From positions 1,860,001 to 1,924,000 of the forward strand of contig AP009389.1 in NCBI GenBank assembly GCA_000010565.1: a DNA stretch of 64,000 bases, read 5' to 3'. Below, in pieces: positions 627 to 5,086 of this stretch (within the stretch, counting starts at the first letter, position 1; each line of letters begins with the position of its first letter). The translations under genes and the position numbers were made by a program. The DNA comes from Pelotomaculum thermopropionicum SI (GTDB lineage Bacteria; Bacillota; Desulfotomaculia; Desulfotomaculales; Pelotomaculaceae). The notes under the pieces are model-generated. The model did not search any database and was not told the DNA's origin. It saw only the letters and a list, made by a program, of their open reading frames with translations.

Positions 627-1898
627 TCAATACAAATCCATCCGCAATTCCGCCCTGCTACAAGCTGTCAGCGAAGGAACCTGTACAATCTCCCTTTCCG
701 GGTAGCGCAGCGCCGTAAGGCTTCCTCCTATTGCACAGCCCCGGTCAAGGCTTATGGTATTGTTTATAAACCCTGCCTTTGAAACAGGATTATGGCCGCA
801 TACAACCAGCGCCTCTCCCCTGTATTCTCCAACCCAGTGCGGAATGGCCGGAAGTCCTTGTTCAGTTGTTTCCCCCCTGGTTTCCCCGAAGAGGCAAAAG
901 TTTTCTACCTGCTCCGTAACCTTTCCGGTCATGTCCGCCCGGATCCCGGCGTGGGAAACTACCAGCCTCCCCCTGTCCAGAATCAGGTATGGCGGGGCGT
1001 TGCGGATAAGCCGGAGAAATTCCTCCCTGAAATACGACCTTTTGTCTTCAGGCAGTGCTTCCACCTCGTCCAGTATCTTTTCCAGTCCCTGCCTGTTCCC
1101 GCCTTCTTTCCCCGCCAGGTAACGGCAGAGCCTCCGGCAGTAGTCGCCGGGAACGTAGAAGGCGTTTCCCGAGTCTACCATTGCTTTTGCCAGCCAGAAA
1201 CTGTCAATGCTGCGCGGCCCCGGGCCGGCAATGTCACCCAGAAACACAACCTTTCTGCCAGACGGATGGGCATGGTAGTTGAACTGCCTGCGGTAGCCCA
1301 ACCTGGCCAGGAGCAAGACCAGTTCACCGTAACAGCCGTGAACATCCCCGATGATGTCAAACGGCCCCGGCAAGGTTAACACGTGCCTTAAGATTTCTAT
1401 TTTGAAGAAGGGGTCATTCAGGTCTTCATCTGTAACGACATAAACATCATCAAAGCCCTCACTGAAAGCACCATCGATAATGTGCCGGAGCTTTTTACTG
1501 GCCTTGATTATAACCGGCCTGATTACCCGGCGCTCCCGCCCGGTGTTACGCTCAAGGCATACATCCAGGGGGATATTGAAAACCAGGAGGGTAACATTAA
1601 AGCCGTATTTTCTGCCGATGCGGAGCAGTTCGCGGCGGGCCTGTCTGGCAATGGCGGTGGAATCGGCTACCGTAAAGCGGCCAAGGGACAGGCGGCGCTC
1701 GATCGTGTAGTGAAAAAGCCTGAATGCTTCCCTGGAAGCCGCCATATTTTCTTCATAATCGCTCACCAGGGCGCGGCAACGGTCGGAAGAGACTATCATT
1801 GTATCCTTGAAATACCGCAAAGCAAAGGTGGACTTGCCGCATCCCGGCGGGCCGCATAAAACCAGCAGCGTCGTTCCCGGCAAGGAGATTTTTTTCAT
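627..1898 (-). CDS. Pnkp-like polynucleotide 5'-kinase with a degenerate calcineurin-like phosphatase domain
   Basis: A 423-residue two-domain protein. Residues 1-160 are a P-loop kinase of the bacterial Pnkp type: GPPGCGKST at 16-24, then VSSDRCRALVSD, VADSTAIARQARRELL and CLERN. Such kinases phosphorylate 5'-OH ends of RNA or DNA. Residues 180-423 match the Pnkp metallophosphatase: intact GDVHG (D185, H187), SHAGI, CGHNP and a C-terminal LDRGCAIGG-LTALRYP. However GDxxDRG is GDIAGPG (221-227) and GNHD is GDYC (251-254), so metal and catalytic ligands are missing and the phosphatase is probably inactive. The ligase domain of full Pnkp is absent and no hen1 is nearby. The start was chosen at the ATG preceded by GGAGGT 9 bases upstream; a longer frame to 1964 lacks a good ribosome site. 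Confidence 0.8.
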   Translation of the reverse strand: MKKISLPGTTLLVLCGPPGCGKSTFALRYFKDTMIVSSDRCRALVSDYEENMAASREAFRLFHYTIERRLSLGRFTVADSTAIARQARRELLRIGRKYGFNVTLLVFNIPLDVCLERNTGRERRVIRPVIIKASKKLRHIIDGAFSEGFDDVYVVTDEDLNDPFFKIEILRHVLTLPGPFDIIGDVHGCYGELVLLLARLGYRRQFNYHAHPSGRKVVFLGDIAGPGPRSIDSFWLAKAMVDSGNAFYVPGDYCRRLCRYLAGKEGGNRQGLEKILDEVEALPEDKRSYFREEFLRLIRNAPPYLILDRGRLVVSHAGIRADMTGKVTEQVENFCLFGETRGETTEQGLPAIPHWVGEYRGEALVVCGHNPVSKAGFINNTISLDRGCAIGGSLTALRYPEREIVQVPSLTACSRAELRMDLY

Positions 1899-2096
1899 AC
1901 ACTTGTTACCTCCGGCAGGTGTAACCGTTATACTTTTTAAGTCTGGCCTGTTCGGCAGCGCCATATCCGCCGTTTGTTAAAAAAGAAATCTTCTGTCGTT
2001 AGCCACGAAACATGATCATATGTTTTTATTCGAGATTTGTCGTTATTTGTTGGAAAATTATGAAAAAATATGGATTATTTCAGAAGGATCCGACCC

Positions 2097-2153: not shown

Positions 2154-2615
2154 ATGGTTAAAGCTCTCTTGTTTTTATTACAGGGCATTCCCGAAATGAT
2201 GGGGATTTTGGCCTTCAGCCTGGCATTTGCCGGCGTCCCCCTCCGCTGGGGGGTTATAGCGGCCGTCGGAACGGTGCTGGCCGTAATTATTTATATAATC
2301 AGATCCCTCCCCCTGGCCTTTGGCCTTCATACAGCAGCAGCCCTACTCCTGGTAACCATTATTATCGCCAAAACAACCTGTGTTCCACCGAGCAAAAGTT
2401 TTATTTCAGTTTTTGCCAGTTTCTCCATCTTAGTAACACTAGAACTGATTATCCACGAATTTTTCTTTTTCCTAACCAAACAGGACCCCCAGGCCGTCAT
2501 TTCAAACTATCTCTTGTGGAAGCTGATCGGACTGCCCCAGGCTTTTCTAATGATTATCCTGGCCCTCTTGATTGCCAGGCTTAAAACGCCCGTTGAAGGT
2601 GCGTGGAAAATATGA
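2154..2615 (+). CDS. Small polytopic membrane protein of the agr-like operon
   Basis: A 153-residue very hydrophobic protein with about five predicted membrane helices and no soluble domain. I do not recognise a named family. Its size, topology and place just before agrB recall the membrane-sensor half of AgrC/GHKL-type kinases cut loose from a kinase domain, but this is inference. The start is ATG at 2154 with GGGG about 6 bases upstream; the frame stays open back to 2070 but without a ribosome site. The stop overlaps the agrB start (ATGA), so the two are translationally coupled. A role in pheromone export, processing or sensing fits the context. Confidence 0.65.
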   Translation: MVKALLFLLQGIPEMMGILAFSLAFAGVPLRWGVIAAVGTVLAVIIYIIRSLPLAFGLHTAAALLLVTIIIAKTTCVPPSKSFISVFASFSILVTLELIIHEFFFFLTKQDPQAVISNYLLWKLIGLPQAFLMIILALLIARLKTPVEGAWKI

Positions 2616-3238
2616 GCTATCTTCCCTTCAGCAGGCGCTGGGCTGGTTATCTGGCCGCCGCCGCCGGCCTTCCCCCGGGCAAAGAAGCCGTTCTGGCTTA
2701 TGCCGTTGAAGTGCTGGCAATAAATTTAATCAACGTCCTCCTTGCCCTTGCCCTTGGCCTGCTGCTGGGCGTCCTGCCGGGCACGGCCGCCTGCCTGGTT
2801 GCGGCTGCTTTATTTAGGCACACCGCCGGAGGGGCCCACTCCAGCTCGCCCTGGCGCTGCGGGGCAATTACCGTCTCCGTATTCCCTTTAATGACCCTGG
2901 CGGCAGCCTCCCTCCCGCCGTTAAAAGAGCCGTTTGACGATATTCTGCCGGCCGCGGCCCTTTTAGCCGGATTTACGGCAATTATCCGCCTGGCGCCCGT
3001 AGACTGCCCTGCCGCGCCGGTCGTATCGCCTTTCAGGCGGAAAAAGCTGAAATCCCTTTCCCTGGCCGTCCTAACGATCCTGGCCGTTATACTGGTCTTG
3101 TTGCGCCGGAGCAACTGGACCGCCGCCCGGCAGGTCCGGTTCGGCCTGGTTTTCAGCATTTTTTGGGTCAGCTTTATGCTTACTGGACCAGGGCACCGGT
3201 TAATCTCGTTAATAGACGGGATAAAAAATAAAAAATAA
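2612..3238 (+). CDS. agrB: AgrB-like pheromone-processing membrane endopeptidase
   Basis: A 208-residue integral membrane cysteine peptidase that trims the C-terminus of AgrD and forms the thiolactone ring. The family signature is plain: R69-H-T-A-G-G-A-H76 followed by C83, the same His-x6-Cys spacing as the catalytic pair of staphylococcal AgrB. About five to six membrane helices surround it. The start at ATG 2612 overlaps the stop of the upstream gene by ATGA and has AAGGTG 11 bases upstream; an in-frame GTG at 2603 is possible. The substrate gene lies 26 bases after the stop. Assignment to the family is strong. Confidence 0.9.
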   Translation: MSYLPFSRRWAGYLAAAAGLPPGKEAVLAYAVEVLAINLINVLLALALGLLLGVLPGTAACLVAAALFRHTAGGAHSSSPWRCGAITVSVFPLMTLAAASLPPLKEPFDDILPAAALLAGFTAIIRLAPVDCPAAPVVSPFRRKKLKSLSLAVLTILAVILVLLRRSNWTAARQVRFGLVFSIFWVSFMLTGPGHRLISLIDGIKNKK

Positions 3239-3264
3239 AAAAACTAGGGAGGTGAAAACCGGTT

Positions 3265-3387
3265 ATGAAATACAAACTTATCGGATTTCTGGCTACTCTG
3301 CTTCTGTTGCTGGCAAATCTCACATCGGCCTCGGCATGTTCTCTATCACAATATCAACCTGAAGTTCCGGAATCGCTCAGGAGGTAG
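3265..3387 (+). CDS. agrD: AgrD-like cyclic lactone autoinducer peptide precursor
   Basis: A 40-residue peptide, too short for most gene callers, with a strong ribosome site (GGGAGGTG) and ATG at 3265. It has a hydrophobic, amphipathic N-terminal helix (residues 5-19), a short Ala/Ser stretch, a single Cys (C25) and the acidic tail PEVPESLRR. The tail aligns with the conserved EVPKEL recognition tail of AgrD proteins. By that alignment the AgrB cut falls after Q29, giving a five-residue ring C-S-L-S-Q; the exact cut is inferred. It lies directly after agrB and before a terminator, the standard B-D order. It should be secreted as a quorum-sensing signal. Confidence 0.88.
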   Translation: MKYKLIGFLATLLLLLANLTSASACSLSQYQPEVPESLRR

Positions 3388-3391
3388 AGGG

Positions 3392-3416
3392 GGAGGTGGT
3401 TATCCACCTCCTTTTT
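3392..3416 (+). terminator. Rho-independent terminator after agrD
   Basis: Perfect 8-bp stem GGAGGTGG / CCACCTCC with loop TTAT and five Ts. It starts 4 bases after the agrD stop and lies before the histidine kinase gene, so kinase expression probably depends on readthrough or its own promoter. Confidence 0.85.
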
Positions 3417-3445
3417 GTATAAACCGTCCTGCTGGGGGTATACAG

Positions 3446-5086
3446 GTGGGTTTAGAAAAGGAAACTCAAAGAAAAAGCGAATTATACGAGTACTTAACAA
3501 CAACCCATATGCTATGCATTTTCATTCTGATATTGGATATGATATTGAGCAAAAATGTATTCAAAAGTATATATCCCGCAATTAACTTTCGCCTTTTTGT
3601 ATTAATAAATTTGATAGGTTTTGGCGTTGTCTTCCTGTATAACACCAAAAACCAGTTGGATCGACAGAACCCCAAGCTGCACACCTGTATAGACATGGCT
3701 TATGTAACTTTGCCACTGTTTATGGCAATAATAAATTTTTATATCTTTAAAACCAGCCTCTATTACGCTAAAACAATTCTTTTCTTGCCCGTTTTAATTG
3801 CGTCCTCGGTCAAGGGAAAAGATACCGGCCTGACCATGTCTACTGTCTGTGCTGCAATTCTGGTATTCTACAAAGTTGCCGGGGAAAGAAGGCCCTTTCT
3901 GCAGGCCCTGGAGTCAGAACTGGTTTTCATCAGCATGTTATACGTCGTGGGCTGGTTCACCGGCGGGCTGACAGATATTGAAAGCCAGCACCGCAAACAG
4001 CTTAACGCCAATTTACAGGACCTGCGGGAAGAAGTGGCCAGGCGGGAGCAGGCCGAGGAACAGCTCAGAAAGCTGTCCAGCGCGCTCGAGCAAAGCCCCA
4101 GCATTGTTGTCATTGCCGACACCGGCGGCAGGATTGAGTACGTAAACCAGAAGTATACCCAGGTTACCGGTTACCTGCCCGAAGAAACAATCGGGGGAAA
4201 TCTTTTTGCCGCTCAGGAATGCCAGCACCCCGAAATACACGCATTATGGAGTGCCGTCAATTCCGGCAGGGAATGGCGGGGAGAACTTCTCAGCCAGAAA
4301 AAAAACGGTGAATTTTACTGGGAATATGCCCTGATTTCACCTTTTAGAAACAGTGACGGAGTCATCACCCACCTGCTCAAAGTGGCTGAAGACGTAACCG
4401 GACGCAAGCAGATGGAAAAAGAAATGGCCCGCCTGGAACAGTTGAACCTGATCGGTGAAATGGCGGCCGGCATCGGCCACGAAATAAGGAACCCGATGAC
4501 CACGGTACGCGGCTTTTTGCAGTTGCTTTGCGGCAAAAAGGAGTTCAGCAAGTACAGGGAATATTTCAGCCTGATGATAGACGAGCTGGACAGGGCAAAT
4601 TCAATAATTACGGAATACCTGTCCATGGCCAAAAACAAACCGGTAGATAAAAAAATGCAAAGCCTAAACCAGCTTCTGAGCGCCATGGCGCCTTTAATTG
4701 AAGCAGACGCAATTAAAAACAATAATTACATCAAAATGGAGCTTTCGGATATTCCGGACCTGCTCCTGGATGAAAAAGAAATCCGCCAGCTCGTTCTAAA
4801 CCTTGTCCGCAACGGGCTGGAAGCAATGCCTCCTGGTCAAAATCTTATAATAAAAACATATATGGAGGATAATGAAGTAATTTTATCGGTCAAAGATCAG
4901 GGCCACGGAATAGAACCCGGCGTGCTTGAAAAAATAGGCACTCCTTTTTTCACCACCAAGGACAACGGCACCGGTCTGGGGCTGGCGGTTTGTTACAGCA
5001 TAGCTGCCCGCCACAACGCCTCGATTAAAGTGGAAACTTCCCCGAAGGGAACTACTTTTTACATCAAATTCAAAGTTCCGGCTTAA
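3446..5086 (+). CDS. Membrane PAS-domain sensor histidine kinase next to agrBD
   Basis: A 546-residue kinase. About six membrane helices fill residues 18-175, then a short coiled coil (REEVARREQAEEQL). A PAS domain with PAC follows (about 205-320: IVVIADTGGRIEYVNQKYTQ). HisKA has the phospho-His in GIGHEIRNPMTT, and HATPase_c shows the N box (LVLNLVRNGLEAMP) and G boxes (DQGHGI, GTGLGLAV). This is the soluble layout of Spo0-phosphorelay kinases such as KinB/KinC, not the GHKL type of classical AgrC. The start is GTG with GGGGG 7 bases upstream. No response regulator is adjacent, so it may feed Spo0F/Spo0A or a distant regulator. A link to the AgrD signal is inferred from position only. Confidence 0.88.
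   Translation: MGLEKETQRKSELYEYLTTTHMLCIFILILDMILSKNVFKSIYPAINFRLFVLINLIGFGVVFLYNTKNQLDRQNPKLHTCIDMAYVTLPLFMAIINFYIFKTSLYYAKTILFLPVLIASSVKGKDTGLTMSTVCAAILVFYKVAGERRPFLQALESELVFISMLYVVGWFTGGLTDIESQHRKQLNANLQDLREEVARREQAEEQLRKLSSALEQSPSIVVIADTGGRIEYVNQKYTQVTGYLPEETIGGNLFAAQECQHPEIHALWSAVNSGREWRGELLSQKKNGEFYWEYALISPFRNSDGVITHLLKVAEDVTGRKQMEKEMARLEQLNLIGEMAAGIGHEIRNPMTTVRGFLQLLCGKKEFSKYREYFSLMIDELDRANSIITEYLSMAKNKPVDKKMQSLNQLLSAMAPLIEADAIKNNNYIKMELSDIPDLLLDEKEIRQLVLNLVRNGLEAMPPGQNLIIKTYMEDNEVILSVKDQGHGIEPGVLEKIGTPFFTTKDNGTGLGLAVCYSIAARHNASIKVETSPKGTTFYIKFKVPA

What the first reader, a model, noticed from the sequence alone, without database searches (positions are those of the whole stretch)
2154..5086. 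Agr-like quorum-sensing cassette with an extra membrane protein and a non-GHKL kinase
AgrB (His76-x6-Cys83) and AgrD are clear. The gene before agrB is an unassigned 153-residue membrane protein coupled by ATGA, and the kinase after the terminator has PAS, HisKA and HATPase domains rather than the GHKL module of AgrC. No response regulator follows. This suggests the peptide may feed a Spo0-type phosphorelay or be sensed by the small membrane protein. The wiring is inferred; the parts are seen.
Basis: partly seen in the sequence, partly recalled or inferred. Interest (0 to 1): 0.65.

Follow-up and report, generated by a model that had tools for sequence, protein, structure and literature searches.

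The report
Split agr receptor with swappable outputs
A bacterial peptide "census" system of the agr type has had its receptor broken in two, a small membrane sensor and a separate membrane signalling protein whose output can be a sporulation-type kinase or a cyclic-di-GMP enzyme, which suggests how agr peptides could control sporulation and lifestyle in this group.

Summary
AgrB (His76/Cys83), AgrD, a 153-aa membrane protein (P1) joined to agrB by ATGA, and a PAS-HisKA-HATPase kinase are present, with no response regulator beside them. P1 is not an unknown extra. It is homologous to the N-terminal sensor (about five TM helices) of AgrC-type SPOB_a/GHKL kinases that sit next to agrB in relatives. 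P1 is found fused to such a kinase, as a separate gene beside one, and, as here, beside a kinase with its own TM domain ("kinN"). The order P1-agrB-agrD-kinN recurs across the order. Twenty kinN loci outside the order, picked by kinN alone, all have P1, and 19 have agrB. The part behind kinN is exchanged: a kinase, or GGDEF-HD-GYP (this genome's second agr locus). The window kinase carries TTGFQL, the specificity residues of Dtox_1918, a kinase shown to phosphorylate Spo0F. The genome has Spo0F and Spo0B candidates, and no AgrC/AgrA pair was found. Best reading: P1 senses the peptide and acts in trans on kinN, feeding Spo0F here. Homology and gene order are shown. Peptide binding, P1-kinN contact and phosphotransfer are inferred. 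One coevolution test did not favour P1-kinN over P1-AgrB.

The parts
2154..2615 (+). P1, 153-aa membrane protein: stand-alone homologue of the N-terminal sensor (about 5 TM) of AgrC-type SPOB_a/GHKL kinases
   Evidence: No Pfam/NCBIfam hit alone; matches residues about 1-150 of SPOB_a+HATPase_c_5 kinases next to agrB; conserved PE, R50, FGxH, E97, P128
2612..3238 (+). AgrB, peptide-processing membrane protease (His76, Cys83)
   Evidence: PF04647 E 5e-34; catalytic residues read from sequence
3265..3387 (+). AgrD precursor; predicted ring Cys-Ser-Leu-Ser-Gln, recognition tail YQPEVPESLRR
   Evidence: TIGR04223 above cut-off; CxxxxYQPEVPxSLRK pattern in relatives
3392..3416 (+). Hairpin with T-run between agrD and the kinase (terminator/attenuator-like)
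   Evidence: dG -16 to -20 kcal/mol; a comparable hairpin in 49 of 51 loci, with compensatory pair changes
3446..4015 (+). kinN: about 190-aa multi-TM N-terminal domain of the kinase, agr-linked, shared with GGDEF-HD-GYP proteins
   Evidence: only sub-threshold DUF4118-like matches in Pfam
4016..5086 (+). PAS-HisKA-HATPase_c output; HEIRNPMTTVRGFLQLL gives specificity residues TTGFQL (Spo0F type)
   Evidence: Pfam; specificity residues by the scheme of PMC6136694

Best explanation
This is an agr-type quorum-sensing locus whose receptor is split in two proteins. AgrB cleaves and cyclises AgrD to a small thiolactone peptide (ring probably CSLSQ). P1, a detached AgrC-type sensor domain, recognises the exported peptide in the membrane and acts in trans on the multi-TM kinN domain of the adjacent protein. 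kinN then switches the attached output: here a PAS-HisKA-HATPase kinase that passes phosphate to Spo0F, then Spo0B and Spo0A; at the sister locus of this genome, a GGDEF-HD-GYP enzyme that changes c-di-GMP. Shown here: gene content, homology of P1 to AgrC-type sensors, recurrent gene order, exchange of outputs, Spo0F-type specificity residues, presence of Spo0B and Spo0F candidates. Inferred: peptide structure, peptide binding by P1, P1-kinN contact, phosphotransfer, control of sporulation.
For: P1 aligns with residues about 1-150 of 448-526-aa kinases with SPOB_a (PF14689) and GHKL HATPase_c_5 (PF14501), most of them directly upstream of agrB in relatives. In other relatives P1 and a 276-314-aa SPOB_a/GHKL-type kinase keeping about two TM helices are separate adjacent genes (L064, L076-L082), i.e. 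a split AgrC; such a kinase matches staphylococcal AgrC from profile position 146 (NF046015; below its curated cut-off). P1-agrB-agrD-kinN order in dozens of loci. Of 20 kinN loci outside the order chosen by kinN alone, 20 have P1 and 19 agrB. Four loci lack agrB but keep P1-agrD-kinase (L037, L042, L048, L050), so P1 goes with peptide and kinase rather than only with AgrB. The window kinase has TTGFQL, as Dtox_1918, shown in vitro to phosphorylate Spo0F (PMC6136694); all 36 kinN kinases examined have similar residues, while among 13 readable HisKA domains of this genome only three read xxGFQL. Spo0B candidate beside ObgE with D. acetoxidans-type residues (QVGLQL) and Spo0F candidate. No AgrC/AgrA pair found.
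Against: Mirror-tree partial correlations are higher for P1-AgrB given kinN (0.58) than P1-kinN given AgrB (0.27), and ring sequence does not single out a receptor. Some kinN proteins stand without P1 (10 of 104 with no agr gene near), so kinN can work alone or with distant partners. P1 and kinN show no homology, so kinN could itself be the peptide sensor. The hairpin after agrD may uncouple kinase expression. No structure of P1 could be modelled with confidence (pLDDT 54). TTGFQL is conserved among homologues, so the 36 kinases are not independent evidence.
Confidence: 0.57

Rival explanations
1. The kinN domain is the peptide receptor. P1 is an accessory of AgrB/AgrD (export, processing or tuning) that descends from an AgrC-type sensor but no longer transmits signal.
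For: P1 overlaps agrB by ATGA and tracks AgrB best in partial correlations; a few agrD-kinN loci have no P1 seen (L143; L153, though its contig ends just upstream; L150 is also at a contig end); kinN is strongly agr-linked (78 of 96).
Against: P1 is homologous to the sensor end of AgrC-type kinases; it persists in P1-agrD-kinase loci without agrB; kinN is absent from the fused and split GHKL loci, where P1 alone accompanies the kinase.
Confidence: 0.25
2. The kinase is an unrelated orphan Spo0-type kinase that happens to lie beyond a terminator; the agr locus signals elsewhere or is only a peptide secretion unit.
For: A terminator-like hairpin separates agrD and the kinase in the window; kinN kinases occur alone in G001, G002 and G004.
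Against: Order conserved over many families, and blind kinN loci carry P1/agrB in 20/20 and 19/20; both kinN proteins of this genome are at its two agrB loci; the hairpin recurs in linked loci, so it is part of the unit.
Confidence: 0.08
3. P1 is a decoy or dominant modulator that inhibits AgrC-like receptors or titrates peptide (tandem P1 copies as dose).
For: Two to three tandem P1 copies in L036, L085, L087, L089, L092, L096, L111.
Against: No AgrC-type kinase found in this genome to inhibit; P1 is present in nearly every system rather than occasional.
Confidence: 0.1

Closest known systems
agr quorum sensing (AgrBDCA) of Staphylococcus and clostridia
   Same: AgrB protease family with His/Cys pair, AgrD precursor with Cys ring and EVPxxL tail, AgrC-type sensor homology in P1
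   Different: No GHKL AgrC and no LytTR AgrA at the locus; sensor is a separate protein; output is a HisKA kinase of Spo0 type or GGDEF-HD-GYP
Spo0 phosphorelay orphan kinases of Peptococcaceae (Dtox_1918 and other candidates, PMC6136694)
   Same: PAS-HisKA-HATPase orphan kinase with TTGFQL specificity residues, Spo0F and Spo0B candidates in the genome
   Different: Here the kinase has the agr-linked kinN membrane domain and sits beside agrBD; that paper's main text does not mention agr
orphan agrBD loci such as C. difficile agr1
   Same: agrBD without adjacent AgrC/AgrA; the agr1 peptide promotes early sporulation by an unknown pathway (PMC11210211)
   Different: C. difficile is not described as having P1 or a kinN kinase beside agr1 in the passages read; its locus was not examined here

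Membership tests
agr peptide production (AgrB/AgrD) | AgrB family protease with conserved His and Cys | tested here: met
   PF04647 E 5e-34, His76/Cys83
agr peptide production (AgrB/AgrD) | AgrD with Cys ring and C-terminal recognition tail | tested here: met
   TIGR04223 40.6 bits over cut-off 19; CSLSQ-YQPEVPESLRR
complete agr (AgrBDCA) | AgrC sensor kinase with GHKL catalytic domain and AgrA LytTR regulator | tested here: not met
   Kinase is HisKA; PF14501 hits elsewhere are DcuS/CitA-like and HAMP-HisKA kinases; the only LytTR gene is a LytS/LytR-type pair
AgrC-type sensor domain | Homology to N-terminal TM domain of agr-linked SPOB_a/GHKL kinases | tested here: met
   the fused kinases are not equivalogs of staphylococcal AgrC (below NF046015 cut-off)
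AgrC-type sensor domain | Binds autoinducing peptide | not testable with these tools
   Needs a binding assay
Spo0F-directed sporulation kinase | Orphan HisKA kinase, PAS, Spo0-type specificity residues | tested here: met
   TTGFQL, PAS, no adjacent regulator
Spo0F-directed sporulation kinase | Spo0F and Spo0B present in the genome | tested here: met
   L133 Spo0B-like beside ObgE; L135 Spo0F-like, 46% identity to B. subtilis Spo0F
Spo0F-directed sporulation kinase | Phosphotransfer to Spo0F | not testable with these tools
   Needs purified proteins

The most novel reading that the evidence does not exclude
A two-protein peptide receptor: P1 (detached AgrC-type sensor) binds the cyclic peptide and switches a kinN membrane transducer in trans. 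Evolution has plugged different catalytic ends behind kinN (Spo0F kinase with or without PAS or GAF, hybrid kinase, GGDEF-HD-GYP), so one agr logic drives either a sporulation phosphorelay or c-di-GMP, and one locus (L160) appears to drive both.
Probability: 0.55. Interest if true: 0.75.

Novelty: new variant of a known kind. Interest (0 to 1): 0.63.

Why it matters
How agr peptides reach sporulation is an open question in clostridia (PMC11210211 calls the AgrD1 route unknown). This locus joins an agr peptide to a kinase with the specificity residues of a kinase shown to phosphorylate Spo0F, and to a recognisable stand-alone sensor, so the route becomes directly testable. It also shows agr outputs exchanged between phosphorelay and c-di-GMP with the sensing unit kept, which would be a natural module set for synthetic receptors. 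Ten full-text searches of the open-access library found no description of it.

Tried and rejected
AlphaFold of P1 with a two-row alignment gave pLDDT 54, so no fold search was made. Profile comparison of P1 with kinN gave no homology. P1 against solved structures gave nothing useful. Rfam on the region gave only a sub-threshold chance match. Mirror-tree correlations did not decide the partner of P1. Full-length searches of phage and plasmid collections with a fused kinase matched only its C-terminal part in the rows listed. The generic terminator scan did not report the hairpin after agrD although folding shows it. A covariation count on the hairpin alignment was not completed with the tool (wrong length of structure string) and was replaced by a script. 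Considered and rejected: P1 as a chance ORF (its profile matches in 93 of 113 genomes).

Full report
WHAT IS THERE. At 2154-5086 on the plus strand are P1 (153 aa), agrB (208 aa, ATGA overlap), agrD (40 aa), a hairpin with T-run, and a 546-aa kinase with PAS, HisKA and HATPase_c. AgrB has His76 and Cys83. The next gene, on the minus strand, is ribulose-phosphate 3-epimerase.

WHAT P1 IS. P1 alone matches nothing in Pfam or NCBIfam. In 25 genomes of the same family it is found in 21, and several matches lie in open frames of 455-536 aa. Four of these longer proteins were scanned and all are SPOB_a (PF14689) plus GHKL HATPase_c_5 (PF14501) kinases, the AgrC class; most lie directly upstream of agrB. 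An alignment of stand-alone and fused copies keeps E14, G57 and H59 in all rows, and P13, R50, E97 and P128 in at least 90%. In a further set (L064, L076-L082, and a shorter one in L083) P1 is a separate gene followed by a 276-314-aa SPOB_a/GHKL-type kinase with about two TM helices and then agrB (hydropathy). One such kinase aligns with staphylococcal AgrC from profile position 146, and a fused one from position 40 (both far below the curated cut-off), which places P1 at the first part of an AgrC-like sensor. So P1 is a detached AgrC-type sensor domain. This is homology; peptide binding was not tested.

GENE ORDER. In 113 genomes of the order, the P1 profile hits 93 and AgrB hits 93. Of 110 listed stand-alone P1 copies, 68 lie within 150 bp upstream of agrB, 30 within 151-1500 bp (tandem P1 or a split kinase between) and 12 have none listed. 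The kinase's N-terminal 190 residues (kinN) hit 78 of 113 genomes. Of 96 strong matches, 78 lie within 3.5 kb of a listed agrB on the same strand. In this genome kinN occurs only at the two agrB loci. As a blind check, 20 loci outside the order were chosen by kinN alone: all 20 have P1 nearby on the same strand and 19 have agrB. One of these, L170, is the same contig as L116 by length. Loci were chosen partly by P1, so their counts are not independent.

OUTPUTS ARE EXCHANGED. Behind kinN stand PAS-HisKA-HATPase (window), HisKA without PAS (L040, L041, L043, L045, L047, L049), GAF-PAS-HisKA (L099), a hybrid kinase with receiver (L186), or GGDEF-HD-GYP (L003, the second agr locus of this genome, and many others). 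A kinN tree needs at least six changes between kinase and GGDEF by parsimony, although strongly supported branches force only one. In L084 two proteins of one locus with sister kinN domains (support 94) carry different outputs. In L160, from a 4,545,624-bp genome that fits Desulfotomaculum acetoxidans DSM 771 by size (my knowledge), one agrD is followed by both a kinN kinase and a kinN GGDEF-HD-GYP protein.

WHERE THE SIGNAL GOES. Davidson et al. (PMC6136694) showed in vitro that Dtox_1918 phosphorylates Spo0F, with specificity residues TTGFQL. By the same scheme the window kinase reads TTGFQL, and all 36 kinN kinases examined read T[TS]G[FYL]Q[LMIY]. Of 16 HisKA matches in this genome, 13 could be read; only this kinase and two others read xxGFQL. 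The genome has a Spo0B-like protein beside ObgE with residues QVGLQL, as in D. acetoxidans, and a Spo0F-like 135-aa receiver. The D. acetoxidans candidates Dtox_3081 (TTGFQF) and Dtox_3426 (TTGFQL) in that paper fit the kinases of L160 and L094 by residues (identification inferred); the paper's main text does not mention agr. No AgrC-type kinase or AgrA was found in this genome. Spo0A was not searched for.

WHICH PARTNER DOES P1 SERVE. For a receptor role: its AgrC-type homology, and four loci that keep P1-agrD-kinase without agrB (L187 also has P1-kinN without agrB). Against or neutral: partial correlations of distances favour P1-AgrB (0.58) over P1-kinN (0.27), ring residues do not discriminate, and some agrD-kinN loci have no P1 seen (L143, L153). 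I therefore hold the split-receptor mechanism at 0.57 and P1 as AgrC-type sensor homologue at about 0.9.

PEPTIDES. Of 78 agrD-like genes beside kinN, 75 have Cys plus four residues before the tail. The window ring reads CSLSQ and the second locus CAGAW. Rings beside kinases look richer in small polar residues and those beside GGDEF proteins in aromatics, with overlap; this was not tested statistically. The ring boundary is inferred from the staphylococcal tail (EVPxxL).

HAIRPIN. In 49 of 51 loci a hairpin below -10 kcal/mol lies between agrD and the output gene, often GAGGTGG...CCACCTC. Pair positions change together between loci, but those sequences were picked as hairpins. Only 14 of 51 have a T-rich tail, so attenuation or processing is as likely as termination.

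LIMITS. All function is inferred. Organism names rest on genome sizes. The literature check covers only the open-access library (10 searches, none describing this system).

Noticed in passing
L003:6198-9225: Second agr locus of the same genome: P1 homologue, AgrB, AgrD (ring CAGAW) and a kinN GGDEF-HD-GYP protein, suggesting two separate peptide signals with different outputs.
   Followed up: yes
window 3392-3416 and relatives: Hairpin with conserved GAGGTGG/CCACCTC stem between agrD and the output gene, usually without a clear T-run in relatives; role in expression ratio unknown.
   Followed up: partly
L036, L085, L087, L089, L092, L096, L111, L113: Two or three tandem P1 genes upstream of agrB; possible mixed receptors.
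   Followed up: no
L037, L042, L048, L050: P1-agrD-kinase loci that lack agrB; the precursor would have to be processed by an AgrB encoded elsewhere.
   Followed up: partly
L160 (3133-7965): One agrD followed by both a kinN kinase (TTGFQF) and a kinN GGDEF-HD-GYP protein.
   Followed up: partly
window 627-1964 (minus): Fusion of an AAA_33 P-loop kinase-like domain and a calcineurin-like phosphoesterase, resembling a polynucleotide kinase-phosphatase arrangement.
   Followed up: no
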